A DNA stretch of 45,197 bases from a virus, in the IMG/VR virus record IMGVR_UViG_3300013094_000098, positions 1-45,197 of that record, one strand, 5' to 3'. Each line of letters starts with the position of its first letter. The stretch's first letter is position 1. Below are positions 4,460 through 27,877 of the stretch, one piece after another. The notes below the pieces were generated by a model, which worked only from the letters and a program-made list of their open reading frames with translations, did no database searches and was not told where the DNA came from. Both the position numbers and the translations under genes were made by a program.

Positions 4460-5524
4460 TTAAACCTTTTTAAATTTCTTGAGAAGTTCAGAATTGTTCA
4501 AAGATACTGGTTGTACCTGAGGTACTTGTGGTTGACCACCGTTCTTAAACTTCTTAAGAAGATCAGCATCTGCTGTTGCAGAAGCACCAATTGAGGCCAA
4601 CGCAGGAAGCTTACCACCAAACACGTATGTGCCTGTGTGTTGTAGATGCATCCAAGGGCAGAGCCATACCTTCATTCCCATATTGCGAACTAGCTGGCAG
4701 AACCAATAATCTTCTGAAAGATAACGCTTAGATCTCTTGCTAGCCTTATCTTCAATATCAGCCATGATATCATCAATCATCTTAGCAATCTGGTCTGGAT
4801 CGTTTAAACGGGCTTCTTTGATACGATTCATAGCTTCTGTAAGAGCACCAACACGATCAAGACCATCAATCTCAGCCTGGAAGTACTGATGAATTTCACG
4901 TGAACCATCAAATGCTTCTGTGCGAACATGATCTGGCTTGTAAGAATATTGAGGATAATGTTGAGCAAACTTCTCAAAGGTTTTACGACGAACCATCATG
5001 AAGCCTGTACCAGTCTCAAGAACCTGTGCAGGTTCATCTAAACGAATGGTGCGGGATTCTTCAGTGTCATCAATAGCAGGATTGAAAACGAAGTCACCAA
5101 CAAAGTCTTCAAGTTGATTTGGATTTTGATCAGCCATGCCCTTATCAACAGCCAACTTAATCTTTTCCCATGTAATACACTTCTTAGGATATGGTGCTGC
5201 AATAACATCATAATCAGATTCAGGAGTCTGCAATGCCATCATAGCAATAACATCCTGAGGATTGAATCCAATGTCAGAGTCAATGAACAAAAGATGTTCA
5301 GAATCAGAACGCATAAATTCATCAACACAATAGTTACGTGCGCGTGTGATCAATGATTCATTAAACAAGAAGTAAGAACGTACTTCAATTCCATAACGAA
5401 CACAGAGAGCAGTTAAGTCACACAATGAACGAGTATACATACCACCTGCAATACCACCATACATTGGGGTAGCTACAAATAGCTTACGTTGTCTTAGAGC
5501 ATCAATATCAATTTTAATTTCCAT
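4460..5524 (-). CDS. glycosyltransferase-like protein (GT-A fold)
   Basis: The 354-residue protein starts with a Rossmann-like strand (LFVATPMYGG), followed by RARNYCVDEFM and the metal-binding type motif LLFIDSDIGF near residue 85. DSD is the DxD-like motif of GT-A glycosyltransferases. A middle segment (GTGFMMVRRKTFE) and SEDYWFCQLVRNMG also fit GT2-like folds. The acceptor is unknown: DNA, host surface or a virion protein are all possible. The C-terminus carries two copies of LLKKFK about 25 residues apart, joined by a Pro/Gln-rich linker. It lies 15 bases upstream of gene 45 in the same operon. Confidence 0.75.
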   Translation of the reverse strand: MEIKIDIDALRQRKLFVATPMYGGIAGGMYTRSLCDLTALCVRYGIEVRSYFLFNESLITRARNYCVDEFMRSDSEHLLFIDSDIGFNPQDVIAMMALQTPESDYDVIAAPYPKKCITWEKIKLAVDKGMADQNPNQLEDFVGDFVFNPAIDDTEESRTIRLDEPAQVLETGTGFMMVRRKTFEKFAQHYPQYSYKPDHVRTEAFDGSREIHQYFQAEIDGLDRVGALTEAMNRIKEARLNDPDQIAKMIDDIMADIEDKASKRSKRYLSEDYWFCQLVRNMGMKVWLCPWMHLQHTGTYVFGGKLPALASIGASATADADLLKKFKNGGQPQVPQVQPVSLNNSELLKKFKKV

Positions 5525-5543: not shown

Positions 5544-5735
5544 TTACCAAGAACCATTATCGATCCATAATACTAGTTTTACTGGACCAAATTCTAAATA
5601 TGTATCAACAACCAATCCCGGATCCATATCATTCTTGGTGACCCAACTGAAATCAATATGCCACGAGAATGGATTGAGATTAAATATTATTAATAAATTA
5701 GAATATTTAATATAATTAAGTATATTTTTTATCAT
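5544..5735 (-). CDS. conserved small phage protein, unknown function
   Basis: The 63-residue frame from ATG 5735 overlaps the end of the Dcd-like gene by 20 bases. Its sequence NPFSWHIDFSWVTKND and FGPVKLVLWIDNGSW has the pattern of a small protein seen in many unrelated phages, with alternating aromatic and hydrophobic residues that suggest beta strands. No signal peptide is obvious; the hydrophobic N-terminal part (NLLIIFNLNPF) is short. The ribosome site is weak (GGTAAAG). Function unknown. Confidence 0.6.
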   Translation of the reverse strand: MIKNILNYIKYSNLLIIFNLNPFSWHIDFSWVTKNDMDPGLVVDTYLEFGPVKLVLWIDNGSW

Positions 5736-6225
5736 GTTCTTTACCAAGACCATAATCCCCATCATACTTCTTCAATGATTCTGACTTGAAGAGTAAGAAT
5801 TGACCTACACGTGTTCCCTTCTTAATCTTAGCAGGAGCGCCTGTAACATGAAGTGTGCCCGCCATAACACCATCATAACCTGAATCATAAAGGCCACTAG
5901 TGATATAAACACCATTACGGTTTAATGTTGAACGAGTGATAACCCATCCAGCCTCACCTTCACCTACACTAATAATGTTCTCCATAACAATTTCATATGA
6001 ACCTGGATTCAAATAGAAATAACCATCTGCGTCAGGACGCATTTCTTGAGAACCACGATGTAGCTTTTGTTCTTTACCATCAACCTCACCAATAGTAAAT
6101 AGTACAGGCTTGATAGCCAATACCTTATCCAATCTAAGATCAACAGCATTAGGTTGGATATCACCTTCCAACATATTAGTTAGACCTGATTTGGTTTTCT
6201 TTGAAGCAATATGTATCATACTCAT
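5716..6225 (-). CDS. dCTP deaminase / dUTPase family enzyme
   Basis: The 169-residue protein has IQPNAVDLRLD (23-33), like motif I of dCTP deaminase, then TRSTLNRNG (97-105) and GLYDSGYDG (111-119), which fits dUTPase motif III with its catalytic Asp. The C-terminal YDGDYG and EHDKKY resemble Dcd. In the usual alignment the Dcd catalytic Glu position (TLE) is not glutamate here (GTLHVTG), so dUTP hydrolysis may be more likely than deamination. It overlaps the amidotransferase gene by 4 bases. It would supply dUMP for dTTP synthesis and keep uracil out of DNA. Confidence 0.8.
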   Translation of the reverse strand: MSMIHIASKKTKSGLTNMLEGDIQPNAVDLRLDKVLAIKPVLFTIGEVDGKEQKLHRGSQEMRPDADGYFYLNPGSYEIVMENIISVGEGEAGWVITRSTLNRNGVYITSGLYDSGYDGVMAGTLHVTGAPAKIKKGTRVGQFLLFKSESLKKYDGDYGLGKEHDKKYT

Positions 6226-6851
6226 AAATCAATTCCGTAATAAGGGTTTTCGACAGTATTAAAAATCCCATCTCTCATAATACCTTCTCCTGGATTAAAT
6301 GTCCAGATAATATTAGCAGGCAATGATTGTGAGTTTTCAAATTTAGTAGATGAGATATTGTGATCATCATCAATAAACAAAGGTGAAATAAGATTGCGAA
6401 ATAATTGCAATCCTTCCATCGGGCTATAGTAAACACAAGAGAATGTTCCATCAATATCATTCAAATGCCCATCATCGATATATTGACGAAGAATCAAATA
6501 TGTATCCCACGTATTATATCGATCATTTTCATATTGTTGTTTTCTCTCATTAATCCATTTAGTTTTAACAATACCATTATGCCACAAAAGTGTATTACCA
6601 ATCCATGCAGGATGGACAGAGTTAATGTCTTTGTTATCAGTGGTTGGTGCTTGCATATGCGCAATGCAATAATGACCTGGTGGGATGTTAATAGCATCTA
6701 AAGGAATTTCACCCAGTCCACGATTAACCTGAATCGTGTTATCTTCTGGATTATAATAAGAATATGAATAAGAATGTTGACCTCTATAAAGATTCAACTT
6801 TACGAGGTCAATGATCTTATCCTTATTGAAAGAACCAATGATACTGCACAT
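6222..6851 (-). CDS. class II glutamine amidotransferase (Gat domain of Gat-QueC), stand-alone
   Basis: The 209-residue protein begins MCSIIG, so Cys2 becomes the N-terminal nucleophile after Met removal. It also has YRGQHSYSY (22-30), IAHMQAPT and LWHNGIV (89-95), typical of class II amidotransferases. Such domains release ammonia from glutamine. In several phages a Gat domain is fused to QueC and makes 7-amido- or 7-amidino-deazaguanine (archaeosine base) from preQ0. Here it is a separate gene whose ATG overlaps the QueC stop by one base (TAATG), so the two are probably made in equal amounts. Substrate assignment is inference from context. Confidence 0.85.
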   Translation of the reverse strand: MCSIIGSFNKDKIIDLVKLNLYRGQHSYSYSYYNPEDNTIQVNRGLGEIPLDAINIPPGHYCIAHMQAPTTDNKDINSVHPAWIGNTLLWHNGIVKTKWINERKQQYENDRYNTWDTYLILRQYIDDGHLNDIDGTFSCVYYSPMEGLQLFRNLISPLFIDDDHNISSTKFENSQSLPANIIWTFNPGEGIMRDGIFNTVENPYYGIDL

Positions 6852-7597
6852 TAAATAAATCTATCCCACTCGACACCAACGACATAATCAATAGGATCAC
6901 GAACACCAGCTCTAATAAAATTCTGTAGACGCTCCGAACAGCTGGGGCAAACACCACATGACCTTCCAGCATCATCAGGATCATAACAAGTAAGAGTGTA
7001 TTCAAGTTTGACATTACCAAGTTCCTCTGCAATCTTAATTTCTTCCCACTTAGCTAACTGACTGAATGGTGCTTCAAGCTTAACCTTGTGGGTACGATTA
7101 AGACCAGCCACCGCATTCATATTATCAACAAACTTCTGTGATGTATCCCAATAACCATATTCATCATGAACTTGCAATCCAGTAAAGACATGGGAAGCCT
7201 TATTAGATTCTGCAAAGGAGAATGCTAAGGCATTCAAAATCATATTGCGAAATGGCACATATGTTTTAGGTTGTGGATCTCCAAGAACGTCTTTGATGGT
7301 TGGCATAGCCACGTCAGTACCGCCAATATTAGCGCTGACATCCTTTACAATATCACCAAGAATTCCGAGATCCAATACTTTATGAGCAATACCAAGATAT
7401 TCACATGTCTTAGCAGCCATCTCAAGTTCTTTTACTTGCTTCTGTCCATAGTTATAGGAAAGAGCAAAAACACGATCCTTACCATACTTCTCAACAAGGA
7501 TGTATGTCATAATAGATGAATCCATTCCACCTGATAGAACAGATACTACATTTTGATCAGTATCAGGCAATGCTGCCAATGCTTCACTTAGATTCAT
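6851..7597 (-). CDS. queC: 7-cyano-7-deazaguanine synthase QueC
   Basis: The 248-residue protein has the PP-loop LSGGMDSS (21-28) that binds ATP, followed by ALSYNYGQKQVKELE, and a C-terminal zinc site with CYDPDDAGRSCGVCPSC. These are diagnostic of QueC, which converts 7-carboxy-7-deazaguanine to preQ0. ATG 7597 is preferred to a GTG at 7600, since GGGAG lies six bases before it. The start overlaps the DUF3310 gene. Together with folE, queD, queE, gat and dpdA in the window it forms a full 7-deazaguanine DNA modification route. Confidence 0.96.
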   Translation of the reverse strand: MNLSEALAALPDTDQNVVSVLSGGMDSSIMTYILVEKYGKDRVFALSYNYGQKQVKELEMAAKTCEYLGIAHKVLDLGILGDIVKDVSANIGGTDVAMPTIKDVLGDPQPKTYVPFRNMILNALAFSFAESNKASHVFTGLQVHDEYGYWDTSQKFVDNMNAVAGLNRTHKVKLEAPFSQLAKWEEIKIAEELGNVKLEYTLTCYDPDDAGRSCGVCPSCSERLQNFIRAGVRDPIDYVVGVEWDRFI

Positions 7598-7832
7598 CAC
7601 GAACTCCCATCAATCTTTCAATTTCACGATCAACATACCATCTAGCTTTCTTGAGATCTTCAATCTCTTTAGTCAAAGCATCATAACCTTTTTCATCTTT
7701 GCGTCCTGCACGAAGAATATACTTCACAGCATTGCCTCGAGAGAAATTCAAATCAAAGATTTCAATAATATCAATAGCCTGAATACCAGTCTTATTTCCT
7801 TTATAATGATCTGGATTAATCTTATCAACCAT
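7584..7832 (-). CDS. DUF3310 protein
   Basis: This 82-residue protein shows NPDHYKG near the N-terminus, then AIDIIEIFDLNFSRGNAVKY and ILRAGRKDEKG, which is the pattern of DUF3310 (SaV-like) phage proteins, sometimes annotated as nucleotide kinase. It is predicted helical with a charged C-terminus (DLKKARWYVDREIERL). The biochemical role of the family is not established. It is embedded between dpdA and queC with overlaps on both sides, so it may assist in nucleotide or modification metabolism; that is context only. Confidence 0.85.
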   Translation of the reverse strand: MVDKINPDHYKGNKTGIQAIDIIEIFDLNFSRGNAVKYILRAGRKDEKGYDALTKEIEDLKKARWYVDREIERLMGVRDESK

Positions 7833-8649
7833 TCACAATCTCCTTAAACTTATTGACATTATAATATAACAAATCCATATCAATGTCACTAATATTCATA
7901 CCATAAACTTTATCAAATGATGCAATTGGTTTTTCATCCAATCCCATATCAGTATACTTGTTGCCGTCAATAGCTGCCATGATAGGGTTAGATGTATCAA
8001 TAGAACGAATCCAATTATAATCTCTATAATAATTAAATTCTTTAGCTTGCCAGGTACCAAGCAAATGATGTGGTCGATTATGATCTACTACGCGTTCATC
8101 ATTCAACCGCTTCAGGAGAAGATATCTCTCTCTGGCTTGAATATAAGGATCTCTCTCCACCCACGAATATACAAACGGAATACCAATCATATAAATGCTT
8201 TGATCAAAGTCCCCCACTCGTAGATCTCTGAAGTATTGATAACAGTCTAACATCTCATCAGGTGAATTACCTTGAATAACAGCCATACCATAATTAACTG
8301 TACCAGGATAAGAAGCTAAAAATTCATTAGTCTGAGAGATTGTTGCTTCTTTATTACCTAACGTATCAGGAAGAATGACAACTGAAGGTAGAATCTTTAA
8401 ACACCATTCATGAAGCAATTCATTGCTAAGAGATGCTCCTAACTCAAAGCAACTATTATCTAGATAAACTTGATGGGATGTACCATTCCAGGTCCAGGCA
8501 CCAACATTTATAATATCCTTAACTGCATTATAGTATTCAGGATCTTCTATGAGCTTATGTAAAAGCACATAGGTATAGTCATTGATCTTAAAATGATCGT
8601 CTGACTTCATAATAGATAGAGGGGTTTCGTGAGCAATCAGCTTTTTCAT
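7825..8649 (-). CDS. dpdA: DpdA-like DNA 7-deazaguanine transglycosylase
   Basis: The 274-residue protein has the pattern of phage DpdA, a TGT-related TIM-barrel enzyme: VYLDNSCFELG (Asp64), VILPDTLG (Asp95), YGMAVIQGNSPDEM, a GIPFVYSW strand, HHLLGTW and RSIDTSNPI. Members exchange guanine in DNA for a preQ0-derived base. No separate tRNA-type Tgt is visible in the window, and the zinc site of Tgt is absent, which argues for DNA as substrate. GGATG precedes ATG 8649. It is the first gene of a run that continues into DUF3310, queC and gat. Remote family, so the call rests on motifs plus context. Confidence 0.82.
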   Translation of the reverse strand: MKKLIAHETPLSIMKSDDHFKINDYTYVLLHKLIEDPEYYNAVKDIINVGAWTWNGTSHQVYLDNSCFELGASLSNELLHEWCLKILPSVVILPDTLGNKEATISQTNEFLASYPGTVNYGMAVIQGNSPDEMLDCYQYFRDLRVGDFDQSIYMIGIPFVYSWVERDPYIQARERYLLLKRLNDERVVDHNRPHHLLGTWQAKEFNYYRDYNWIRSIDTSNPIMAAIDGNKYTDMGLDEKPIASFDKVYGMNISDIDMDLLYYNVNKFKEIVNG

Positions 8650-10227: not shown

Positions 10228-10686
10228 TTATGGCCACAGGTATTTTTCAGGTATTTTGGAATTATCTATAAAATAATTCATATCAGGATACAAATTAGGC
10301 TTTTGAAGTAACCTTTCGGTAATTCTTTCAATAATAATGTCATAAGCCTCTTGATCTGGCTCCCAATCTTGATACCAAATCACTGGGAACTCTCTTTTAA
10401 ACCTGGATAAATGCTGACCAAAAAGTTCATCGTTTATCTTAATGTTTCGTCTTTTACATTCAATATTTAAAGCAATGTATCTCTTTTCAAGATAATAGGC
10501 TTTATCATAAAAGAATTTAACATGCCCACCATTCAAACAAAATTTCTCCGGAATCTTTACGGATTCCAGATTACCCTTGATAGCGGTTCTTGTCATAGGA
10601 TAAATGATCTGAGTTAATTCTTTATACTCAGCAACAAGATGTCTTGTTGTTAATATTTCTGGATTGACCAGATTAATTCTTGTCAT
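10228..10686 (-). CDS. denV: pyrimidine dimer DNA glycosylase, endonuclease V
   Basis: The N-terminus MTRINLVNPEIL with LVAEYKEL is nearly that of T4 endonuclease V (MTRINLTLVS, LMAEYREL). Thr2, which becomes the N-terminal nucleophile, Arg3 and the catalytic Glu23 are all present. GGHVKFFYDKAYYLEKRYIAL matches the region GAGHVTFFYDKLEFLRKR. The enzyme removes UV-induced pyrimidine dimers and nicks the abasic site. At 152 residues it is slightly longer than T4's 138. It follows the nuclease-like gene with no gap. Confidence 0.95.
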   Translation of the reverse strand: MTRINLVNPEILTTRHLVAEYKELTQIIYPMTRTAIKGNLESVKIPEKFCLNGGHVKFFYDKAYYLEKRYIALNIECKRRNIKINDELFGQHLSRFKREFPVIWYQDWEPDQEAYDIIIERITERLLQKPNLYPDMNYFIDNSKIPEKYLWP

Positions 10687-11504: not shown

Positions 11505-12251
11505 TTAGTTACAGGTGAACTTCTGTAACTTAATATTATCAAAGAATTCTTGTTTAGCAGATTGCGTATAGAATAGACCATGAAGAACAGTGGTCTGTGT
11601 TGTACTATTAGAGGCCATAATTCCTCTGTTCTCGCAACAACCATGTTTAGCTTCAATGTATACTGCTACGTTCTCAGATTTAGTAGCATCCATTATTGCT
11701 TTGGCGATGTCACCGCAAAGCTCTTCCTGAAGAGTGCCACGTCTCGCACAATGTTGTGCAATCCTAATATACTTACTAAGCCCGATAACATGAGTAGAAG
11801 GGATGACCCCAATGTAAGCGGTACCTGTAACAGGTTGATGGTGATGAGAGCACATAGACTTAAGTTCAACACGGACAACAAGCATACCATGATAAGGCTC
11901 CGTGCCATGCGATCCGTCATTAGGGAATGAAGTTGAAGTGGGTTCATCATGATACCTCCCATACATAATTTCATTGATATACATTTTAGCTAGACGACGA
12001 GCAGTACCCTTAGAATTAGGATCATTGTCAACATCAATTAGCAATGAACGAAGAACACCTTGAAATTGTGATTCTACCTCATCAATGAGTAGAGCCCTTG
12101 TCTCATCATCCAAATATTCACTAATGTTATCATTAGCAAAATACCGATGATTGGCATTTTCCAACTTTGCTTTAATTTTTTCTGATATTGAACGCTGACT
12201 ATCATATGCATCATGTTCTCTAATTGCTATAAAATCTTCTCTCTTACTCAT
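11505..12251 (-). CDS. folE: GTP cyclohydrolase I
   Basis: The 248-residue protein carries the GTP cyclohydrolase I core: MCSHHHQP (Cys134, His137 for zinc), AYIGVIPSTHVIGLSKY, RRGTLQEEL, and EAKHGCCENRGI with the second zinc Cys. The enzyme converts GTP to dihydroneopterin triphosphate, the first step of folate and of deazaguanine synthesis. Next to queD and queE its role here is to feed preQ0. It is the last gene of the coupled run that starts at gene 55 and overlaps queD by 4 bases. Confidence 0.95.
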   Translation of the reverse strand: MSKREDFIAIREHDAYDSQRSISEKIKAKLENANHRYFANDNISEYLDDETRALLIDEVESQFQGVLRSLLIDVDNDPNSKGTARRLAKMYINEIMYGRYHDEPTSTSFPNDGSHGTEPYHGMLVVRVELKSMCSHHHQPVTGTAYIGVIPSTHVIGLSKYIRIAQHCARRGTLQEELCGDIAKAIMDATKSENVAVYIEAKHGCCENRGIMASNSTTQTTVLHGLFYTQSAKQEFFDNIKLQKFTCN

Positions 12252-12745
12252 ACAAACAAATCCTCATTCCATTCACGATGGCCTTCACGGAAGGCCATAT
12301 TTGCTATTGTCTCACGTACTTCAACTCGATAGCACCAAAGGCTCTCTGCTTCACCTTGACCCCACATATCAGGAATATAGACTCCGTTGACATACTTGTA
12401 CAACATATCTGCAAGGCCCTCACAACCAAGTTTTGGTAGAATAGTTAGCTTAGCTAATTTCTTCTCCTGAAGCAACAGATATGTTTCCATCTCTGGATCA
12501 TCCTGTGCTACAAGCAAAGTATGATCAAACTGATCCTCTAGAACCTTCTTGAGCTCTTTCAAACCACCATAATCTGCTGCCCAATTGCGAGCATCTAGAT
12601 CATTAGTACCAAAATGGAACTTCATGGAGAATGAGTATCCATGAATTAGATTGCAATGACTATCAGCTTTCCACTGGCGATATGCTACAGGGAAGGCATT
12701 GTGGTATTCCTTGGTAGAAGTATACTTATAAGCTACGGGCTGCAT
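12248..12745 (-). CDS. queD: QueD-like 6-carboxytetrahydropterin synthase with altered zinc site
   Basis: The 165-residue protein follows the QueD/PTPS pattern with Cys31 in HCNLIHGYSF, FDHTLL and VEVRET. Canonical QueD binds zinc by three His in AAH and HGH; here these read VAY and HGY, so only His35 is kept and Tyr22 and Tyr37 replace the others. I have seen this form in phage-type QueD, so it is likely a subfamily, not decay. It should convert dihydroneopterin triphosphate to 6-carboxytetrahydropterin. It is coupled to both neighbours. Confidence 0.88.
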   Translation of the reverse strand: MQPVAYKYTSTKEYHNAFPVAYRQWKADSHCNLIHGYSFSMKFHFGTNDLDARNWAADYGGLKELKKVLEDQFDHTLLVAQDDPEMETYLLLQEKKLAKLTILPKLGCEGLADMLYKYVNGVYIPDMWGQGEAESLWCYRVEVRETIANMAFREGHREWNEDLFV

Positions 12746-12999
12746 TATTGCTCCTCAAAATCTTGAAATTTAACACGCTGAATGTGATTCTTCTCACAAT
12801 ATGTTTCAATACGACGATCGATATATTCATCTAGATATTCTTTAAATTTATCTTTAGCAGCAGGTATCAATGAATTACGAATCTCGTCACCCTGCCGCCA
12901 TCTACCTTCTTTGTTAGCAAACCACTCATCATCTAGAGTATCAACTAATTTCTCTAATGCACCAACAAAATCATCAATAATATCAGAACTTTTTCTCAT
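12745..12999 (-). CDS. small acidic helical protein inside the queuosine-type operon
   Basis: The 84-residue frame starts at ATG 12999, which overlaps the queE stop as TGATG and is preceded by GGGGGA; a longer frame to 13056 exists but has no better start. The product is helical and charged (IIDDFVGALEKLVDTLDDEW near its start) with no known motif. It is set between queE and queD, with a 1-base overlap to queD. It could be a partner of either enzyme, or an unrelated passenger. Confidence 0.65.
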   Translation of the reverse strand: MRKSSDIIDDFVGALEKLVDTLDDEWFANKEGRWRQGDEIRNSLIPAAKDKFKEYLDEYIDRRIETYCEKNHIQRVKFQDFEEQ

Positions 13000-13865
13000 C
13001 ACGTCCCCCATTGATTTTTCCAGAGCTGCACTTGTAGACGAGGAGTATAACGCCAACCATGCTTAATGCAGAGATCCGCAACCCACTTCTCATTATCATT
13101 ATAAACTAAAGTAGTGCCACCAGCAGGCATTAGATAAATTGGAATCTGATCCATAACAGGACCAAGTATAGCACTATATGCATCAATAGCTTTTAATACA
13201 TCTTCGTAGTCTTCTTGATTAGATACAACCCACTTGAAATATACAAGAGAGGAATGATTAAAATAATCTTTAATGATTTCTGGTTTAATAGCTTCTTCAA
13301 ACTTCTCGCCAGACGAAGGTAACTTAGATGATACACTATAGGTGATATCAAGCCATGGGAAATAATCATTGGATACAAACCAATCTTTAAGACCTGGTTT
13401 TAATTCTTGAGTACCATTGGTTTCAAAAGTAATATGGGTTAGATTCATATCACGCTTACCAATTTCCTCAAAGAGTTCTGTATATGATTTCTGCCATCCA
13501 AGAAGAGGTTCACCGCCAGTAAGGATCAAATGCTTATCTGGTCCAAACTTGCCACCAGGAAGCATCTCCTGCATCTTGTCTACAATCTCTGTAATTTCCA
13601 TTAATGGCGAAAGGTGTTTAAAACGAGGATCCCAAGAAGCGTAAGAATCGCAACCAGTATGGACAAGAGGTAGAGAGTTATAGTCGGTATACTCTTTCGG
13701 ATCGATATCGAGGCGCTCAACAGAAAGACTTCCGCGAGGCATACCAAACCCAGGACACTGGAAGTTACAACCGAAAACTCGAAGAAATACTGAAGGAGTA
13801 CCAAGATATTGCCCTTCCCCTTGTAGTGAATAAAATAGTTCTGCGACCTTAATCTTTGACATCAT
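12999..13865 (-). CDS. queE: QueE-like radical SAM enzyme, unusual cluster motif
   Basis: The 288-residue protein starts with KVAELFYSLQGEGQYLGTPS, the QueE signature, followed by FGCNFQCPGFGMPRG. The usual CX3CX2C cluster motif is incomplete: Cys33 and Cys37 are present but position 40 is Phe. Cys72 in TGCDSYASWD may supply the third ligand, as QueE proteins are known to vary here. LTGGEPLL and a later FETNGT match QueE. It converts 6-carboxytetrahydropterin to carboxydeazaguanine. Start is ATG ATG at 13865, overlapping the gene upstream. Confidence 0.92.
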   Translation of the reverse strand: MMSKIKVAELFYSLQGEGQYLGTPSVFLRVFGCNFQCPGFGMPRGSLSVERLDIDPKEYTDYNSLPLVHTGCDSYASWDPRFKHLSPLMEITEIVDKMQEMLPGGKFGPDKHLILTGGEPLLGWQKSYTELFEEIGKRDMNLTHITFETNGTQELKPGLKDWFVSNDYFPWLDITYSVSSKLPSSGEKFEEAIKPEIIKDYFNHSSLVYFKWVVSNQEDYEDVLKAIDAYSAILGPVMDQIPIYLMPAGGTTLVYNDNEKWVADLCIKHGWRYTPRLQVQLWKNQWGT

Positions 13866-14103: not shown

Positions 14104-14584
14104 TGTAATAACCTTTCATAGCTTTTTCTCTGTGATATCTGTTAGCTCTATTAATAAAAAGTACACCATTAAGATGGTCAAGTTCATGTTGGATAATTCT
14201 GGCTGTTAATCCATTAAAGGTTCTTGTGTCAACACCTCCAGATGGTGTTTGAAATCTAAGACGAATTTCTTTAGGTCTTTTAATTTTTACGTTGACACCA
14301 GGAAAAGATAAACAAGCCTCATCCATCAATTCAGTCTCTGCTGATTCATTAACAATCTTAGGATTAAAAAATACAAAATTTTCAGGATAACCCTTAATAG
14401 CTATTACTGAATATGGTATGCCAATTTGGTTGGCTGCTAAACCAACACCATCATTATCATTCATTACTTGCATTAGCTGTAGAGCTAAATCACCAGGATT
14501 TGTTGGTGGCTTCATAAAATTAAATGGTTGTGTGGGGGTTGTAAGAAGAGAGTCGGGATATTTCACAATGCTATTCATAATCAT
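14093..14584 (-). CDS. peptide deformylase
   Basis: The 163-residue protein has all three deformylase motifs: GVGLAANQIG (46-55), EACLSFPG (89-96) and HELDH (133-137), which supply the metal ligands Cys91, His133, His137 and the catalytic Glu134. Motif II has Ala where EGCLS is usual. Phage deformylases are short forms, and this is in their size range; they act on nascent phage or photosystem-like proteins to remove the formyl group. It overlaps the glycosyltransferase by 4 bases. Confidence 0.95.
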   Translation of the reverse strand: MIMNSIVKYPDSLLTTPTQPFNFMKPPTNPGDLALQLMQVMNDNDGVGLAANQIGIPYSVIAIKGYPENFVFFNPKIVNESAETELMDEACLSFPGVNVKIKRPKEIRLRFQTPSGGVDTRTFNGLTARIIQHELDHLNGVLFINRANRYHREKAMKGYYNVK

Positions 14585-15423
14585 CTCTGTAATTGTAAGA
14601 TTTCAAATTTATAATGATCAAGTACTTTTTCACCAGTATCAGGAAGAATAAAGTCTTTATATTTTTCTTTATTATTTAATATATATTCTGGAAAATAACT
14701 ATCCAAATCTACTACACTATATTTCATCCTATCACTTCTGATATGATCTATTTTATTATTCATAATAAAATTTAAATGTTTTAGATTATCTTCTATCTCT
14801 GGTATGTCTACTTCAGTATGACTAAAACTTTTTAATTTTTTATAAAGGGCTTCATCATTACCCATCCAACTAAAATGCCAACCAGCATGATGTAAGAAAA
14901 TATAATCTTTTTTATATTCTCTAAATTTTCTTAATGAACTAGGTTGTGAATTATGATAACCTCTATAGGCACCAGCCCATGCAACATACCCCACTTGATC
15001 AGACAAGACATCAACATAATTAAACTTATAATAAGATACAGGCATAATTAAGCCATAGTAAGAATTAGATGTATTCTTTATATAATTGATAGTCTCAGGT
15101 CTAACAATTTCATCTACATCAGACATGATGATTACATCATTATCTTCAAGACCATACCATCCAGACTTTAACATATCTCTAGACCAACTTTCATTCATCC
15201 ACGGATCATCAAAGCATGGTGAATTAACTTTTAGATAAACAATCTTGTCTATCCATTTAGAAAATTTAGAAACATTTTCCTCAAAGAAGTATGGTTTCTT
15301 TATGTTAGTAAAAGTATGATCACTTTCTACGATAACGATGCGATCAACATGATCAGCCATAATGGATAGTCTTAACTCTAACATATCCAATTCATTAAAG
15401 AATATGATAGAGTCAACAACCAT
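14581..15423 (-). CDS. GT17-like glycosyltransferase
   Basis: A 280-residue protein from ATG 15423, which overlaps the preceding stop as TAATG and is 8 bases after GAGGAA; the upstream ATG at 15432 is too close to that site. The pattern DSIIFFNELDMLELRL, then IVIVESDHTFT, IIMSDVDEI and HHAGWHFSWMG is that of glycosyltransferase family 17. DVDE probably binds the metal. It may add sugars to phage DNA, virion or host surface; the acceptor is not visible. Many AT-rich codons and a separate style suggest recent acquisition. Confidence 0.82.
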   Translation of the reverse strand: MVVDSIIFFNELDMLELRLSIMADHVDRIVIVESDHTFTNIKKPYFFEENVSKFSKWIDKIVYLKVNSPCFDDPWMNESWSRDMLKSGWYGLEDNDVIIMSDVDEIVRPETINYIKNTSNSYYGLIMPVSYYKFNYVDVLSDQVGYVAWAGAYRGYHNSQPSSLRKFREYKKDYIFLHHAGWHFSWMGNDEALYKKLKSFSHTEVDIPEIEDNLKHLNFIMNNKIDHIRSDRMKYSVVDLDSYFPEYILNNKEKYKDFILPDTGEKVLDHYKFEILQLQR

Positions 15424-15605
15424 TAAACCCATTCCTCAGCAACGCCAATTGCTTCAGCAATAAACAATCCAAATGCTAACCAAAATAAATTTTCTAAACT
15501 TGAAGGTTGATACATTACATACAAACATGTAAACAATCGAACAGCACTTTTAGCATAAGACATATAAGTATGCCACTTGCGATAGTTATTTTCAAAATCA
15601 CTCAC
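15423..15605 (-). CDS. small membrane-like protein
   Basis: The 60-residue product has a polar N-terminus (MSDFENNYRKWHTYMSYAKS) and two hydrophobic stretches (VRLFTCLYVMY and NLFWLAFGLFIAEAIGV), so it may sit in the inner membrane. It overlaps both neighbours by a few bases. Similar small membrane proteins are common in phage replication operons, without known role. Confidence 0.6.
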   Translation of the reverse strand: MSDFENNYRKWHTYMSYAKSAVRLFTCLYVMYQPSSLENLFWLAFGLFIAEAIGVAEEWV

Positions 15606-20219: not shown

Positions 20220-20510
20220 TTATAACTCCGTGTTGAAGATTTTATATTCAAAACCTTCATCGTTGTAGATATTTAGTCTTTCAGTAAAATGTTGAAGAGT
20301 GAAATTTGCATGAGTACCAGATTTCAAATCATCTGCTAAATCATATAATATCATCTCAGATTTGTCATCCCCAATGCGAAGTCCACGGCCGATAGACTGT
20401 AATATTCTAACACGAGACTTAGAAGGAGAAGCAAGCACGACACTGTGAAGATTCCGTATATTGATTCCTGTAGAAAAAGGTACCGTATGAGGCAATAATA
20501 ATTGCACCAC
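20220..20510 (-). CDS. uvsW: UvsW C-terminal fragment, helicase motifs V-VI, split off
   Basis: The 96-residue frame carries FSTGINIRNLHSVVLASPSK and QSIGRGLRIGDD, motifs V and VI of the second RecA domain of UvsW. Its N-terminal 13 residues are out of the ancestral frame: the other frame reads GAIIIASYGTF, the usual sequence before STG, and a run of five T at 20473-20477 shifts it by +1. The frame used starts with GTG codons at 20510/20507 preceded by AAGGAG, so separate translation is possible. Whether it rejoins the N-terminal part or is a remnant is unknown. Confidence 0.8.
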   Translation of the reverse strand: MVQLLLPHTVPFSTGINIRNLHSVVLASPSKSRVRILQSIGRGLRIGDDKSEMILYDLADDLKSGTHANFTLQHFTERLNIYNDEGFEYKIFNTEL

Positions 20511-20527
20511 ACTTCTCCTTTTTAATA

Positions 20528-21244
20528 TTAGTAGGTTTCATTTTTTTTTCTCCCTAAACCTTTATTACTTCTTCCTCTGACCCATCCATCACCTGGGGAT
20601 TCTCTACTTTTCAAAGTATTTTCACCATCAGTCCACCAAACTATACCTAGCCTTGCTTCTATCGTTTTACTACGAAAATTATCATCTTGCCAGTGGTGTT
20701 TGATTGTTTCCCCTGCCTTTTTTCTTTTGGTTGTGGATTTGTTTACCACATTCATTTTTTTACTAAATTTCTCTAAGTAATCCAAATCTTCATATCTTTT
20801 TTTTAAATTATCTTTATATCTTTCAACACCAAATAATTCATTATACAATTTCATATCATCACTTTTTTTATTTTTTAATTCATCAGTCCAGTAACTTTTC
20901 ATTTTTTGTGATTTACGATTTCTTAACTCCACGGTGTTTCCTAAATTATTTTTATTAATATAACTAAACCCACCTTTACCACCTTCACAAATATTATATG
21001 TATTAATACGATTACAATATTGCTCGGTAACTAATTCTTTTTCTTTATTATTCATGTCTGCTTCGTTATCAAAAATAAATAAAATATTTTTGATAAAATT
21101 TTCAACACCATATTTTTTTATAGCACGTTTAAGATATTTTCCCGATCCTAAATAGCTATCATTTATATCCTCTGTTACATGTTTACCAATATATTCCATA
21201 TTATTAATAACATTAATTGTTTTATATATTAAAAAATACTTCAT
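20528..21244 (-). CDS. GIY-YIG homing endonuclease inside uvsW
   Basis: The 238-residue protein starts MKYFLIYKTI and NNMEYIGKHVTED, the GIY-YIG core, followed by SYLGSGKYLKRAIKKYGVEN, with a catalytic Glu in the NKEKELVTEQ region. The C-terminal part (WWTDGENTL and SPGDGWVRGRSNKG) is a DNA-binding module common in phage GIY-YIG enzymes. It sits between the two uvsW parts on the same strand. A late promoter (21277-21284) precedes it. It would cut an uninterrupted uvsW gene in a competing phage and copy itself there. Confidence 0.9.
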   Translation of the reverse strand: MKYFLIYKTINVINNMEYIGKHVTEDINDSYLGSGKYLKRAIKKYGVENFIKNILFIFDNEADMNNKEKELVTEQYCNRINTYNICEGGKGGFSYINKNNLGNTVELRNRKSQKMKSYWTDELKNKKSDDMKLYNELFGVERYKDNLKKRYEDLDYLEKFSKKMNVVNKSTTKRKKAGETIKHHWQDDNFRSKTIEARLGIVWWTDGENTLKSRESPGDGWVRGRSNKGLGRKKNETY

Positions 21245-21271
21245 GATGTTGATTCCAGTAATAAATGTTCA

Positions 21272-22585
21272 TCATTTATTTATAATCCATACATCAGAAA
21301 TGTCATCATCTAAGGTAATATTTTTTGCTTTTTTGGTATTACCAGAGGTTAATAAAACATCATCATCACTGCTACATATTATTTTTTTATTATCAAATTC
21401 AAATGTAATTTTCTCCTCATCGTGGGTCTCAACAATCTCTCGAATTTTTTCCCTATCGACACCATCAATACCTCCATGCACAAAATATATTTTACGATCT
21501 GGTTCTTTCGTTGTTATCATGTCATATAAGATCTTACCATGCTTATCAACATATTGGAATAATACCAGCGAATTACCTTTTAATGATAAAGCAAGATTGC
21601 GAATAAATTTATTTCTCTTTTCATGTCTAACTAAGAAATCCATTTCATCAGGGTAAGTAAATTTCTTGGCTAGCTTTCTATCATCACTATTATGTTTTAA
21701 AATAATTGCTTTGATTTTAAGATTGGCTATATGACCTTGTTCCATTAATTCAGAAGAGGTTGTAACCTGCTTGACTGGACCAAACAAACCTTCAAGTGTT
21801 ATTCTATTAGTTAGTGAACCATCTAATGTTCCTGTAAATCCATAACGGTATTTACAGTTAATTAACTTTTCCATAATAGACTTAAGGGATGTTGCTTTGA
21901 ATAAGTGAACCTCGTCACCTATCACACAACCGAATTGATTAAACCAATCCTTAGGCATCTTGTAAATAGATTGCCATGTAGATATAACAATAGGACTCTT
22001 AGATACTTTATCAACACCTGCTGTGATAGAATGAATATCAAGGTCTGCAGTTGTGTAACTATCAAAATCTTTTTTCATTTGCATGACGAGAGAGACAGTT
22101 GGAACAATAACCAAAGTCTTCATTCTCATCATATTATAATAACGAGCTAATAGAAAAACAATAAGACTTTTACCGGATGCTGTGGGTGAAAGAAATACAC
22201 CACGTTCATTACTAATAGCATTGGTGAAAGCTGCTAGTTGATAATCTCTAGGTTCTTTAGTGAGACTAAATTCTTTCAGATCATAATCATATTTGTCAGG
22301 TCTTAATTCTTTATCTATTTCTATATCATAATTACGAGCAGCAGCAAACTCAGAAATCTCCTTAACCAGCCCTGCATAAGTCAGGCCAGTTAAAGAGTTA
22401 AGTAATCTGATCTTACCATCCCAATATTTGTTTTTAAATGCAGGAGAAAATTTAGCTCCTGGTATTTCAAATGTTAGGTGATCTGATAATTCTTGGATGA
22501 CGGAGGCTTCACTAACAACTCTCAGGTAAACCTCATTTACCTTTATCAGTTGCAACTTGTCACGCACCCACTTGGAATTTGGCAA
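21272..22585 (-). CDS. uvsW: UvsW helicase N-terminal part, truncated before motif V
   Basis: The 437-residue frame has the UvsW N-terminal domain (KYWDGKIRLL), Walker A SPTASGKS (133-140), DEVH (224-227), TGT (251-253) and motif IV region. True uvsW sequence ends near HDEEK (about residue 392). The last 46 residues (ITFEFDNKK, then CSSDDDVLLTSG and KKAKNITLDDDI) look like intein block B. Motifs V and VI are in a separate frame at 20220-20510. UvsW unwinds recombination and replication intermediates; this part alone should lack helicase activity. Start is uncertain: TTG 22585 or GTG 22567; the latter fits T4 better. Confidence 0.88.
   Translation of the reverse strand: MPNSKWVRDKLQLIKVNEVYLRVVSEASVIQELSDHLTFEIPGAKFSPAFKNKYWDGKIRLLNSLTGLTYAGLVKEISEFAAARNYDIEIDKELRPDKYDYDLKEFSLTKEPRDYQLAAFTNAISNERGVFLSPTASGKSLIVFLLARYYNMMRMKTLVIVPTVSLVMQMKKDFDSYTTADLDIHSITAGVDKVSKSPIVISTWQSIYKMPKDWFNQFGCVIGDEVHLFKATSLKSIMEKLINCKYRYGFTGTLDGSLTNRITLEGLFGPVKQVTTSSELMEQGHIANLKIKAIILKHNSDDRKLAKKFTYPDEMDFLVRHEKRNKFIRNLALSLKGNSLVLFQYVDKHGKILYDMITTKEPDRKIYFVHGGIDGVDREKIREIVETHDEEKITFEFDNKKIICSSDDDVLLTSGNTKKAKNITLDDDISDVWIINK
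21277..21284 (-). promoter_or_regulatory. late promoter TATAAATA for the uvsW-embedded endonuclease
   Basis: An exact TATAAATA lies in the last codons of the uvsW N-terminal frame, about 33 bases before the endonuclease ATG. T4-type homing endonuclease genes often have such a late promoter so they are not made early. Confidence 0.65.
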
Positions 22586-24798: not shown

Positions 24799-24823
24799 AA
24801 TATAATAAGAGATGGAGAGAGTG

Positions 24824-25312
24824 ATGCAGTTAATTCAAAAAGGTTCGGTCTATACCACTAAGCAGGCCTTCTTTCAGGATAAAGAGTATCGCAATAAGAC
24901 CCGTGAGTATGTGGATCTAGCTAATAAGATCCTACCTTATATTAAATCTAAGCTTCAGTTTGGGGTTGATGTTAAAATCATTATTGGCTTCACCAAAGCT
25001 GCAAATAATTATGGATCGTATACACACACTTTAAGGGAAGTCAAGGTTGAGGTGCGTCAAAGCAAGATGCGTTTCATTGATTCTTTGGTTCATGAATTGG
25101 TTCACGCTCAGCAGGATTTCTTAGGTCAGCTACGTCCTAAATTTGATTGTAATGATGGTTACATTTTCTACTGGAATGATGTAAATTTTGGTAAACACCC
25201 TACCTCACATGCTAAGTACTTGGCTCTGCCATGGGAAGTTGAGGCTCGTAAGGTTGCAGCAGAAATGACCAAAGAGGTTATGGCTATGTTGAAAGAAGAG
25301 GAAATCGGTTGA
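24824..25312 (+). CDS. SprT-like zinc metalloprotease-like protein
   Basis: The 162-residue protein from ATG 24824 (GGAGAG spaced before it) has HELVH (90-94), a zinc metallopeptidase motif, and PWEVEA near residue 136, which can supply a third metal ligand. This is the pattern of small SprT-like / M48-like phage proteins; substrates are unknown. It is the first plus-strand gene, behind the early promoter at 24770-24798. Confidence 0.72.
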   Translation: MQLIQKGSVYTTKQAFFQDKEYRNKTREYVDLANKILPYIKSKLQFGVDVKIIIGFTKAANNYGSYTHTLREVKVEVRQSKMRFIDSLVHELVHAQQDFLGQLRPKFDCNDGYIFYWNDVNFGKHPTSHAKYLALPWEVEARKVAAEMTKEVMAMLKEEEIG

Positions 25313-25338
25313 TTTCTTTTTTCAAAATACCGTATATT
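25309..25338 (+). promoter_or_regulatory. early sigma70-like promoter, plus strand
   Basis: TTGATT (25309-25314, overlapping the preceding stop), 18 bp with TTCAAAATACCG, TATATT (25333-25338), leader GAGATGGAGA. Confidence 0.7.
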
Positions 25339-25363
25339 AAAATAATGAGAGATGGAGATTGAT

Positions 25364-25714
25364 ATGCTTGTTGAGATTCGTAATACACATCCACATATGG
25401 GTCGAAGTTCTTACACATATGAAGGTGAGGTTGTTGCAACCCCTAAGTGGGTTCCATATGATGCTATTGCTCTAACGACCAATGAACCTAAATTTCGTGT
25501 GCGTATTATTGATAAGTCTAACATCGTCTCAATAGACGGTCAAGAATATAAATCTGATCAGAAAATTAAATCCGACATACAGACTTTTTCTGTTGCCGGT
25601 TCTAAAGGTAACGTGTATACTGTATCTATAGGATCAAAGTTTAAAGAATGTACATGTACTGCATTTACCTATCGTAGGACATGTAAGCATATTGACGAGG
25701 TATTAGGTAAATGA
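25364..25714 (+). CDS. SWIM zinc-finger protein
   Basis: The 116-residue protein, ATG 25364, ends with ECTCTAFTYRRTCKHIDEVL, a SWIM finger CxC-x8-CxH (Cys96, Cys98, Cys107, His109). SWIM domains bind DNA or proteins. The N-terminal part is unfamiliar. It lies behind its own early promoter and overlaps the start of the next ORF (ATGA). Confidence 0.75.
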   Translation: MLVEIRNTHPHMGRSSYTYEGEVVATPKWVPYDAIALTTNEPKFRVRIIDKSNIVSIDGQEYKSDQKIKSDIQTFSVAGSKGNVYTVSIGSKFKECTCTAFTYRRTCKHIDEVLGK

Positions 25715-25770
25715 GTCTTGAAAGAATTTATCAGAAGCATTATAATAAAAATAAAAAGAGGGCCAAATGA
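25711..25770 (+). CDS. 19-residue coupled mini-ORF
   Basis: ATG at 25711 overlaps the preceding stop (ATGA) and its TGA overlaps the next ATG (ATGA). The product is a short basic peptide (MSLERIYQKHYNKNKKRAK). Its main role may be translational coupling to the next gene, whose ribosome site GAGGG lies inside it. Confidence 0.4.
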   Translation: MSLERIYQKHYNKNKKRAK

Positions 25771-26216
25771 TTATTAAGTGCAACATTAAGAATGAATCTT
25801 CGTGGCTAGATGATGCTACAATCATTAAGATTGAGGATCATTATAAGGCCACTTATGTATTTGAATCCTGTTTGAAAGATGTTTATGATGGGTGGGCTAA
25901 TTTCCCTGTTGCTATCTTCTATACAGATGTAGCTCATCCTCAAGGATCTAATTATTTTGGTTTATATAAGACCGAAGATGGTGCTGTTATGATTGCTAAT
26001 GGTATCAAGGCAACCGAAGAACCTTTTTCTGGAGTAATGGCTAAAAATGGTGATGTTATATATTCTCGGTATCGGCATGATTATCGCACTTCTGATGATG
26101 GCTCTGTTTTTGTTGACGGAGGCCGCGACTACTTTCGATCAGGTGTCTATGATAAAGAACAATATGTATCATTAAGAGTGAATAAGGATAAGCTGGAGGC
26201 TTTTAAAGATGACTGA
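25767..26216 (+). CDS. uncharacterised 149-aa protein
   Basis: The protein is acidic with many aromatic residues (WLDDATIIKIEDHYKATYVF near the start, GGRDYFRSGVYDKEQYVSLR near the end), suggesting beta strands. No domain is recognised. Coupled to the mini-ORF upstream and overlapping the next gene by 8 bases. Confidence 0.65.
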   Translation: MIIKCNIKNESSWLDDATIIKIEDHYKATYVFESCLKDVYDGWANFPVAIFYTDVAHPQGSNYFGLYKTEDGAVMIANGIKATEEPFSGVMAKNGDVIYSRYRHDYRTSDDGSVFVDGGRDYFRSGVYDKEQYVSLRVNKDKLEAFKDD

Positions 26217-26406
26217 TGATGAATTTAAAGTATTATATCGGTTTACTAAAACTATGAGAAATAGTAAAATGATAGAACACCCCGATGATAATGTTGAAAT
26301 TATTTTTGACGGGACAGAAACAAATATACATGTAGTGTTGAGTCAATTTGAAACATTCCTGAAAGCATCAGGATACATTTTTGATCATTTGGAGGTAGTA
26401 CGATGA
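26209..26406 (+). CDS. uncharacterised 65-aa protein
   Basis: Small acidic protein (MTDDEFKVLYRFTKTMRNSK at the start) without known domain. It overlaps the gene upstream by 8 bases and its stop overlaps the SPFH gene start (ATGA), so all three are probably translated together. GGAGG precedes its neighbour's start rather than its own. Confidence 0.55.
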   Translation: MTDDEFKVLYRFTKTMRNSKMIEHPDDNVEIIFDGTETNIHVVLSQFETFLKASGYIFDHLEVVR

Positions 26407-27596
26407 TTAGTAATATTATTAAGTCCCTTGTAGCTATGATGGTCTACTTGGTTTTGATTAGCCTTATTAATCCCTTTGCGACATTGATTACAGGCGCTGT
26501 AGCAGGCGGGCAATTTGATAACAGTTCTATGTCATATCTAAGTGCAACGTTTGTTTTTACATTGTTTAATACATTGTATTTTGTTGCTACGTTTGGATTC
26601 TTGATGTCTCTATTTGCAATTTGGATGAAAACATTAAAAGAATTTATTGCAGCATCTACTGTATTGTTGTTGCTAGTAATGATTGCTCATCCTCAACAGG
26701 CTTTTGCATATGCTGATACTGTTGATAAGACAGAAGCATATACTATTCTTCCTAATGAATCAGCATTTTGGATTCCTGATGTTGGAGCAAACAAGGATAC
26801 TCAAGCCAAGTTTGACTCAGAATCATACTTGAGTGATAATAAGGTAGCAGCAAAGCGCTTTATTGTACCACATGCAAAGCTTGGCAACTCTGGTGGTTTC
26901 CTTGGTTGGGACTTTTATGTTCCTACTGGTCGTTTGATTATTGTTGACCGTACACCCTATTCACGTGAATGGGTAAAAGCATCTAATCGTGGTACATCAT
27001 CTGGTGATCAATCATTCCCTTGTCAGTCTAAGGAAGGTTTAAACATTACTGCTGGTGTTTCAATTGGTGCATCAGTATCAGAAGAAAATGCTGCAAAGTT
27101 TCTATATCGTTTTGGTGTTGTTACACCACAAGGTGATCGTAAAGATCCTCAGGTAATCTTTGCTTCTGTATATACTGGTCGTTCATTAGCCAGTGTTATG
27201 GATGATGTTGGTCGTAAGAAGATTCAAACGCTCGTTTGTGCAGAAATTGGCAAGCGTACTTTTGATCAGGCCAATGAAGAAATGATCTCTATTATGGATT
27301 CAGTTCAGAAGACGACCAAAGAGTATTTTGCATCTGTAGGTATTACTCTAGACTTTATTGGATGGGCAGATACGTTTGAGTTTGATGCACCCGTGCAAAA
27401 GGCTGTAAACGATCGTTATATTGCTACTAAGTTGGCTTCTGCACTTCCAGTACTACAAGCAGTTGCAGGTCTTAAAGTCCAAGAAGGTCTTGGTTCTGGA
27501 TTGGATAAGCATGGCTTGCCTATCGTAGTCACTCCTCAGATGATTGATGCGTTGATTGGATTGGCACCTAAAGTCATTGTTCCGGAGGCAAAATAA
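26403..27596 (+). CDS. membrane-anchored SPFH/band-7-like protein
   Basis: The 397-residue protein has hydrophobic helices at about residues 8-30, 46-74 and 81-96, then a domain from about 175 to 345 with GRLIIVDRTPYSREW, SKEGLNITAGVSIGASVSEE and DFIGWADTFEFDAPVQKAV, matching SPFH/band-7 folds (stomatin, prohibitin). Such proteins form oligomeric rings on membranes and guard proteases. In a phage it may alter the host membrane. GGAGG precedes ATG 26403; a TAATG overlap couples it to the next gene. Confidence 0.75.
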   Translation: MISNIIKSLVAMMVYLVLISLINPFATLITGAVAGGQFDNSSMSYLSATFVFTLFNTLYFVATFGFLMSLFAIWMKTLKEFIAASTVLLLLVMIAHPQQAFAYADTVDKTEAYTILPNESAFWIPDVGANKDTQAKFDSESYLSDNKVAAKRFIVPHAKLGNSGGFLGWDFYVPTGRLIIVDRTPYSREWVKASNRGTSSGDQSFPCQSKEGLNITAGVSIGASVSEENAAKFLYRFGVVTPQGDRKDPQVIFASVYTGRSLASVMDDVGRKKIQTLVCAEIGKRTFDQANEEMISIMDSVQKTTKEYFASVGITLDFIGWADTFEFDAPVQKAVNDRYIATKLASALPVLQAVAGLKVQEGLGSGLDKHGLPIVVTPQMIDALIGLAPKVIVPEAK

Positions 27597-27877
27597 TGAA
27601 TCGTCGTAGTTTATTTGGAGCATTAGCACTATCGCCTTTAATGGCGGTAGCTGCTTTTGCTAAAGAAGACATCTCTAATGATCAACCTATCCCAGAATCA
27701 ACACAAATTACTATTATGGGTAGTAAAAAACTTAAGCCAGTTAAATCAAAATACGGTTTGAGTTTTAATAATGCTGAGACTGATCCAAATAAAGCAGTAT
27801 CAATGGCAGTAGGAGAAGATGGTAATCTTTGGTTGAAAAATAAAAATGGAAATTGGAAAAGGATCGTAACAGAATGA
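27596..27877 (+). CDS. small exported protein with twin-Arg-type signal
   Basis: The 93-residue product starts MNRRSLFGALALSPLMAVAA with a cleavage-like AFA, i.e. an RR motif followed by a hydrophobic core, which may use the Tat or Sec route. The mature part is short and Lys/Asn-rich (ITIMGSKKLKPVKSKYG). Function unknown. Coupled to the SPFH gene and to the next gene (ATGA). Confidence 0.65.
   Translation: MNRRSLFGALALSPLMAVAAFAKEDISNDQPIPESTQITIMGSKKLKPVKSKYGLSFNNAETDPNKAVSMAVGEDGNLWLKNKNGNWKRIVTE

What the first reader, a model, noticed from the sequence alone, without database searches (positions are those of the whole stretch)
6222..8649. Amidotransferase split from QueC in a DpdA-type DNA modification cluster
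Seen: a stand-alone class II amidotransferase (Cys2, HNG) with a 1-base overlap to queC, beside DUF3310 and a DpdA-like gene. Known: in several phages Gat is fused to QueC (e.g. phage 9g) and makes the archaeosine-type base in DNA. Inference: here the same step is done by two coupled proteins, so the DNA should carry a 7-amido- or 7-amidino-deazaguanine.
Basis: partly seen in the sequence, partly recalled or inferred. Interest (0 to 1): 0.8.

Follow-up and report, generated by a model that had tools for sequence, protein, structure and literature searches.

The report
Phage QueC with separate amidotransferase partner

Summary
Window 6222-8649 (minus strand) holds dpdA-like, DUF3310, queC and a stand-alone class II amidotransferase (Gat); queC and gat overlap by one base (TAATG). 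folE, queD and queE lie upstream. The inference that Gat implies an amido- or amidino-deazaguanine is not supported.

(1) The split pair is not new: KVP40-like Vibrio phages, nt-1, pf16 and hundreds of IMG/VR contigs have it, mostly annotated 'hypothetical'.
(2) The same pair feeds clusters with different end products. Vibrio phage 6E35.1a has it plus QueF, and its DNA is published as 15% dPreQ1. Contig L007 has QueC 95% and Gat 90% identical to the window, yet adds QueF and a formyltransferase and carries a different DpdA (34%).
(3) Over 47 clusters QueF status changes once on the DpdA tree but 8 times on the QueC+Gat tree, about as random.
(4) Gat has Gln67 where GlmS, PurF and phage 9g Gat have the glutamine-binding Arg.

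Best reading: Gat plus QueC is a two-protein preQ0 synthase, and a small TGT-fold DpdA inserts the base. Predicted base here: dPreQ0, with dADG possible. Campylobacter phage CP220 gp056, from a phage whose G is fully replaced by dADG, belongs to this DpdA family.

The parts
7825..8649 (-). DpdA-like TGT-fold enzyme ('DpdAx', QueF-less subfamily); putative base-exchange enzyme that puts the 7-deazaguanine into DNA
   Evidence: AF2 pLDDT 91.7; the 50 best Foldseek hits listed are all TGT; D64, D95, Q126-G127, H195, D218 invariant in A4 and lined up, in strand order, with TGT D102, D156, Q203, D280 (mapping made by eye). Phage relatives: Flavobacterium immuto DpdA 33%, Campylobacter CP220 gp056 31%. 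Not DpdA2, not 9g DpdA
7584..7832 (-). DUF3310 small protein (domain of phage 'nucleotide kinase' families), role in the pathway unknown
   Evidence: PF11753 E 1.3e-12; PHROG nucleotide-kinase families; lies between dpdA and queC in 12 of 13 QueF-less DpdAx clusters
6851..7600 (-). QueC, 7-cyano-7-deazaguanine (preQ0) synthase; probable start ATG at 7597
   Evidence: PF06508 E 3e-52; P-loop and zinc Cys conserved in A2; 67% identical to Vibrio phage 2.275.O QueC
6222..6851 (-). Stand-alone class II amidotransferase (Gat), phrog_12378; proposed partner of QueC. Cys2, Asn92-Gly93, Asp116 conserved; Gln67 in place of the usual Arg
   Evidence: phrog_12378 E 6e-38; fold GlmS/PurF/EgtC; residues; 1-base overlap with queC; Gat found beside 63 of 67 queC-selected contigs
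11505..12251 (-). FolE, GTP cyclohydrolase I, first step to preQ0
   Evidence: PF01227 E 2e-39
12248..12745 (-). QueD, 6-carboxytetrahydropterin synthase
   Evidence: PF01242 E 6e-15; phrog_2389
12999..13865 (-). QueE, radical SAM 7-carboxy-7-deazaguanine synthase
   Evidence: phrog_2076 E 3e-56; Fer4_12 and Radical_SAM
5716..6225 (-). dCTP deaminase/dUTPase-like gene directly after gat (4-base overlap); conserved neighbour, probably ordinary nucleotide metabolism
   Evidence: PF22769 E 2e-14; same order in L006 and L007

Best explanation
Gat and QueC act together as a two-protein preQ0 synthase. The Ntn-type Gat releases ammonia, most likely from glutamine, and QueC uses it with ATP to turn 7-carboxy-7-deazaguanine (made by FolE, QueD and QueE) first into the amide ADG and then into the nitrile preQ0. 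preQ0 is a common precursor. What reaches the DNA is set by the downstream block: the DpdA type, with or without QueF and a formyltransferase. In the window that block is a 274-aa TGT-fold DpdA of the QueF-less subfamily plus DUF3310, with no QueF, formyltransferase or ArcS-type protein found on the contig. It should exchange guanine in DNA for preQ0 (dPreQ0), or for ADG if QueC releases it. Shown here: genes, folds, catalytic residues, co-occurrence, and swapping of the downstream block while QueC-Gat stays constant. Inferred: ammonia transfer, the substrate of Gat, the inserted base, and protection from restriction.
For: Near-obligate pairing: 63 of 67 queC-selected viral contigs have gat downstream, 3 of the rest end too soon, mostly with the same 1-base overlap. 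Natural swap: window against L007, QueC 95%, Gat 90%, FolE 79%, but DpdA 34% and DUF3310 38%, with QueF and a formyltransferase added in L007. On 47 matched clusters QueF status changes once on the DpdA tree and 8 times on the QueC+Gat tree (shuffles: mean 10.7, minimum 7); DpdA type also changes 8 times on a wider QueC+Gat tree. A formyltransferase sits with 37 of 38 QueF+ DpdAx, 0 of 13 QueF- and 0 of 34 DpdA2 clusters. Residue 160, beside the TGT position that contacts the 7-substituent, is Asp in 37 of 38 QueF+ and Val/Cys/Gly in 13 of 13 QueF- DpdAx, fitting a charged aminomethyl base against a neutral one. Measured DNA of phages with the pair: 6E35.1a (QueF) 15% dPreQ1 (PMC12028318); nt-1 (no QueF) mostly dPreQ0 (PMC6884629). 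QueC chemistry needs ammonia (established knowledge).
Against: Bacterial QueC uses free ammonia and many phage QueC have no Gat, so a dedicated ammonia source is not strictly needed. Gat has Gln67 at the position of the glutamine-carboxylate Arg in GlmS, PurF and 9g Gat (84/84 and 57/57), so glutamine may not be its substrate. In phage 9g, fused Gat-QueC does make dG+. nt-1, with the pair, also has small amounts of dADG and dG+. The window is a 45 kb fragment, so a QueF or ArcS gene elsewhere cannot be excluded. No complex was modelled and no chemistry was tested.
Confidence: 0.58

Rival explanations
1. One reading: separate Gat and QueC together do what fused Gat-QueC does in phage 9g. They aminate preQ0 to the archaeosine base (or hold it as the amide), so the DNA carries dG+ or dADG.
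For: Same two domain types as 9g Gat-QueC, which makes dG+ (PMC6884629); Cys2, Asn-Gly and Asp conserved; nt-1, with the pair, has traces of dADG and dG+; the window has no QueF in a fully covered cluster; CP220, whose DpdA is in the same family, has 100% dADG (quoted in PMC8306585).
Against: Same pair in QueF clusters, one measured as 15% dPreQ1 (PMC12028318); QueF status almost random on the QueC+Gat tree; Arg replaced by Gln67; only weak profile similarity to 9g Gat; nt-1 dG+ can come from its ArcS-type DUF5591 protein, absent from the other records tested; CP220 and immuto lack this Gat.
Confidence: 0.2
2. Gat is no longer a glutaminase. With Gln67 in place of Arg it has taken another amide or nitrile substrate, for example trimming ADG or another intermediate, or it is a mainly structural partner of QueC.
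For: Gln67 invariant in 84/84 and, in a sample not chosen by Gat motifs, 57/57; HxQAPT and WDT motifs invariant and different from 9g; family found only in viruses and virus-looking MAG contigs.
Against: Nucleophile Cys2, oxyanion Asn-Gly and the Asp that binds the glutamine amino group all kept; best folds are glutamine-dependent enzymes; Gln67 could still bind a carboxylate.
Confidence: 0.15
3. The genes raise queuosine precursor for host tRNA, or Gat serves another nucleotide pathway (it abuts a dCTP-deaminase-like gene), and phage DNA is unmodified.
For: DCD-like gene overlaps gat; phages with preQ0 genes but no DpdA have been proposed to boost tRNA queuosine (PMC6884629).
Against: A TGT-fold DpdA overlaps the same gene string and belongs to a family found in modification clusters; the DCD-like gene is an ordinary phage nucleotide gene; Gat follows QueC, not DCD, across families.
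Confidence: 0.05

Closest known systems
Vibrio phages KVP40, nt-1 and 6E35.1a (Straboviridae) 7-deazaguanine cluster
   Same: queC followed by stand-alone gat with a 1-base overlap; FolE, QueD; QueC about 60% and Gat about 31-35% identical to the window
   Different: They use DpdA2 (about 460-520 aa), not the small DpdA of the window; many add QueF; nt-1 adds a DUF5591/ArcS-type protein
Fused Gat-QueC of Enterobacteria phage 9g (and archaeal Gat-QueC)
   Same: Class II amidotransferase linked to QueC; full preQ0 pathway and a DpdA
   Different: Fused; keeps the glutamine-binding Arg (NARAEPTT against HMQAPTT); 9g DpdA not found by the window's DpdA profile; proven dG+ product (PMC6884629)
Flavobacterium phage immuto (Immutovirus) DpdA, QueF and formyltransferase cluster
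   Same: Same DpdA family (E 2.6e-112)
   Different: QueF+ subfamily with formyltransferase; no Gat
Campylobacter phages CP220 and CPt10 (Firehammervirus), 100% dADG
   Same: gp056 (hypothetical) belongs to the window's DpdA family, E 2e-74, catalytic residues kept; no QueF
   Different: No Gat in the genome; biosynthesis genes scattered; total replacement of G

Membership tests
Gat-QueC archaeosine synthase (phage 9g type) | Amidotransferase domain fused to QueC in one protein | tested here: not met
   Two ORFs, stop TAA and start ATG overlapping by one base
Gat-QueC archaeosine synthase (phage 9g type) | Gat with the canonical glutamine-binding Arg, as in 9g | tested here: not met
   Gln67 in 84/84 aligned Gats and 57/57 of the queC-selected set; 9g has Arg
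Gat-QueC archaeosine synthase (phage 9g type) | Product dG+ in DNA | not testable with these tools
   Needs LC-MS; a phage with the same pair plus QueF has dPreQ1 (PMC12028318)
Class II glutamine amidotransferase (Ntn) | Cys right after Met, Asn-Gly oxyanion, Asp for the substrate amino group, Ntn fold | tested here: met
   C2, N92-G93, D116 invariant; Foldseek GlmS/PurF/EgtC E about 1e-8 to 1e-6
Class II glutamine amidotransferase (Ntn) | Arg that binds the glutamine carboxylate | tested here: not met
   Aligned with GlmS HTRWAT and PurF HVRYPT; Gln in this family
QueC (PF06508) | Pfam match, SGGxDS P-loop and zinc Cys cluster | tested here: met
   PF06508 E 3e-52; motifs invariant in A2
DpdA / tRNA-guanine transglycosylase superfamily | TGT barrel with catalytic Asp and base-binding Asp/Gln | tested here: met
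   Foldseek TGT, E 1.6e-7, prob 1.00; D64, D95, Q126, D218 invariant in A4
DpdA / tRNA-guanine transglycosylase superfamily | Inserts a 7-deazaguanine into DNA | not testable with these tools
   No biochemical data on this subfamily in the papers read
DpdA2 (Vibrio phage nt-1 type) | Sequence similarity to nt-1 DpdA2 | tested here: not met
   18-22% over a forced, gap-rich alignment; A4 profile finds nothing in nt-1

The most novel reading that the evidence does not exclude
The small DpdA family is the missing insertion enzyme of viruses with amide- or nitrile-type deazaguanines, including Campylobacter phage CP220, whose guanine is entirely dADG with no insertion enzyme named in the papers read. 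Its QueF-less members, with the DUF3310 nucleotide-kinase-like partner, would exchange the base in DNA or at the nucleotide level. The paired Gat, having lost the glutamine-binding Arg, would be a new Ntn specificity that controls whether QueC stops at ADG or goes on to preQ0.
Probability: 0.15. Interest if true: 0.8.

Novelty: new variant of a known kind. Interest (0 to 1): 0.52.

Why it matters
It gives a testable role to a 'hypothetical' gene in KVP40-like phages and hundreds of environmental viruses. It shows that a Gat gene next to queC should not be used to predict archaeosine in DNA. It separates a precursor module (QueC-Gat) from a swappable insertion/tailoring module, with one residue (160 of DpdA) that tracks QueF. 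It also proposes CP220 gp056 as the DNA transglycosylase for the fully dADG-substituted Campylobacter phages; no such enzyme is named in the papers I could read.

Tried and rejected
Considered that the window DpdA is DpdA2 of nt-1: rejected. Considered that Gat derives from splitting a 9g-type fusion: rejected as unsupported (Gln67). My first QueE seed from nt-1 was mislabelled: the nt-1 gene at L002:4318-4998 is a DUF5591/ArcS-type protein, found by Pfam; later steps use the corrected label. dS between window and L007 gat is saturated, so only the L006 value is used. Sequence search of PDB with the DpdA profile gave no significant match; the fold search settled it. The key papers Cui 2023 (NAR), de Crecy-Lagard 2024 (MMBR) and Crippen 2019 (J Virol) are not held, so whether this DpdA family or the stand-alone Gat is named there is unknown. 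The formylated-preQ1 product expected for the formyltransferase clusters is from memory. No Gat-QueC complex could be modelled with the tools.
Full report
WHAT IS THERE. The window is a 45,197-base IMG/VR virus fragment with T4-like core genes (clamp, clamp loader, terminase, portal, capsid; read by eye). On the minus strand lie queE 12999-13865, queD 12248-12745, folE 11505-12251, then, after a run of small genes, a tightly overlapping string: dpdA-like 7825-8649, DUF3310 7584-7832, queC 6851-7600, gat 6222-6851 and a dCTP-deaminase-like gene. The queC stop and gat start share one base (TAATG).

GAT. Gat has no Pfam match but belongs to phrog_12378. Its AlphaFold2 model (pLDDT 91.7) matches class II amidotransferases: GlmS, GFAT, PurF, EgtC. 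Cys2, Asn92-Gly93 and Asp116 are invariant. One expected residue is missing: the Arg that binds the glutamine carboxylate is Gln67 in all 84 aligned relatives with that column and in all 57 of a sample chosen by QueC rather than Gat. Phage 9g Gat keeps the Arg. The family is viral: the scan of 84,980 prokaryote genomes found only four MAG contigs, each with the same kind of cluster.

DPDA. The 274-aa protein is not DpdA2 of nt-1 and shows no convincing match to 9g DpdA. Its model (pLDDT 91.7) has the TGT fold: the 50 best solved structures listed are all TGT. D64, D95, Q126-G127, H195 and D218 are invariant. They fall, strand by strand, on TGT D102, D156, Q203 and the nucleophile D280; this mapping is mine, by eye, and uses remembered TGT numbering. 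Relatives in named phages are Flavobacterium immuto (annotated DpdA), Campylobacter CP220 and CPt10 ('hypothetical'), Chryseobacterium MA9V-3 and Bacillus BSP7.

THE SPLIT PAIR IS COMMON. tblastn finds Gat in 51 phage records, 49 from Vibrio and 2 of Pseudomonas pf16. nt-1, 1.081.O and 6E35.1a show the same 1-base overlap. An alignment search of IMG/VR gave 324 contigs, of which 80 were fetched. In a sample selected by QueC, 63 of 67 contigs have Gat downstream, 3 end too soon and 1 lacks it within 1 kb.

THE PAIR DOES NOT SET THE END PRODUCT. Clusters with the pair fall into four kinds: small DpdA without QueF (window); small DpdA with QueF and a formyltransferase; DpdA2 with QueF; DpdA2 without QueF. 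The formyltransferase is in 37 of 38 QueF+ small-DpdA clusters, 0 of 13 QueF- and 0 of 34 DpdA2 clusters. L007 is a natural swap: QueC 95%, Gat 90%, FolE 79%, QueE 74% identical to the window, but DpdA 34% and DUF3310 38%, with QueF and formyltransferase present. On 47 matched clusters QueF status changes once on the DpdA tree and 8 times on the QueC+Gat tree; shuffled labels give a mean of 10.7 and a minimum of 7. A first, wider set gave 1 against 11, and 8 changes of DpdA type on the QueC+Gat tree. These were quick trees, but the contrast is large. DpdA residue 160 is Asp in 37 of 38 QueF+ and Val, Cys or Gly in 13 of 13 QueF- sequences. By strand order it sits at the TGT loop (about L231) that contacts the 7-substituent; an acid would fit the charged aminomethyl of preQ1 and a neutral residue preQ0 or ADG. 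This is inference.

MEASURED BASES IN RELATIVES. Hutinet 2019 (PMC6884629) reports for nt-1 dPreQ0 232, dADG 72 and dG+ 44 per million nucleotides, and assigns the amidotransferase role to an ArcS homologue; a search of the paper for nt-1, Gat and amidotransferase showed no stand-alone Gat. I find Gat, no QueF and a DUF5591 protein in nt-1, and DUF5591 in none of the other records tested. For 6E35.1a, PMC12028318 reports 15% dPreQ1; I confirm queD, folE, DpdA2, queF, queC and gat there. So a phage with this Gat makes preQ1 DNA. CP220, with 100% dADG (quoted in PMC8306585), has no such Gat.

MECHANISM. Most likely Gat is the ammonia donor for QueC, which needs ammonia at the CDG-to-ADG step, and the pair makes preQ0. 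The window's DpdA then exchanges guanine for preQ0 or ADG. Shown: gene content, folds, residues, linkage, modular swapping. Inferred: substrate of Gat, channelling, final base, protection from restriction. Gln67 is the main weakness.

NOVELTY. Deazaguanine DNA clusters, Gat-QueC fusions and DpdA are known. New here, as far as the held papers show, are the two-protein QueC-Gat as a common, product-neutral module with an altered glutamine pocket, the two DpdA subfamilies tied to QueF and formyltransferase, and the assignment of CP220 gp056 to this DpdA family (E 2e-74). Three key papers could not be read, so priority is uncertain.

Noticed in passing
NC_027997.1 (CP220) 54675-55451; L011:11998-12774: CP220 gp056, 'hypothetical', is a member of the window's DpdA family with catalytic residues kept; candidate insertion enzyme for the fully dADG-substituted Campylobacter phages, for which the papers read named no DpdA.
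   Followed up: partly
L002:4318-4998 (nt-1 ORF388): DUF5591 (archaeosine-synthase ArcS-type) protein, found only in nt-1 among the records tested; probably the ArcS of Hutinet 2019 and a source of the trace dG+.
   Followed up: partly
window 20220-22585: UvsW helicase gene is interrupted: N-terminal part 21272-22585 and C-terminal part 20220-20510, with a SegE/GIY-YIG-like ORF at 20528-21244 between them; looks like an intron or intein with a homing endonuclease.
   Followed up: no
window 28546-29259: Second GIY-YIG-like ORF (judged by eye, no Pfam match) next to the major capsid gene.
   Followed up: no
window 24812-28490, + strand: Short island on the opposite strand with reversed GC skew at 26-28 kb, holding an SPFH/Band-7-like membrane protein (26403-27596).
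   Followed up: no
window 14581-15432 and 4460-5524: Two glycosyltransferase-like genes (GT17 family; phrog_1574 of unknown function) near the cluster; could act on DNA or cell surface.
   Followed up: no
window 10228-10686: Pyrimidine dimer DNA glycosylase (PF03013), a T4 DenV-like repair gene.
   Followed up: no
window 7584-7832 and 11 other QueF-less clusters: DUF3310 is wedged, usually overlapping, between dpdA and queC in 12 of 13 QueF-less clusters; a different, weaker DUF3310 precedes QueF in some QueF+ clusters. Suggests a role in the modification pathway.
   Followed up: partly
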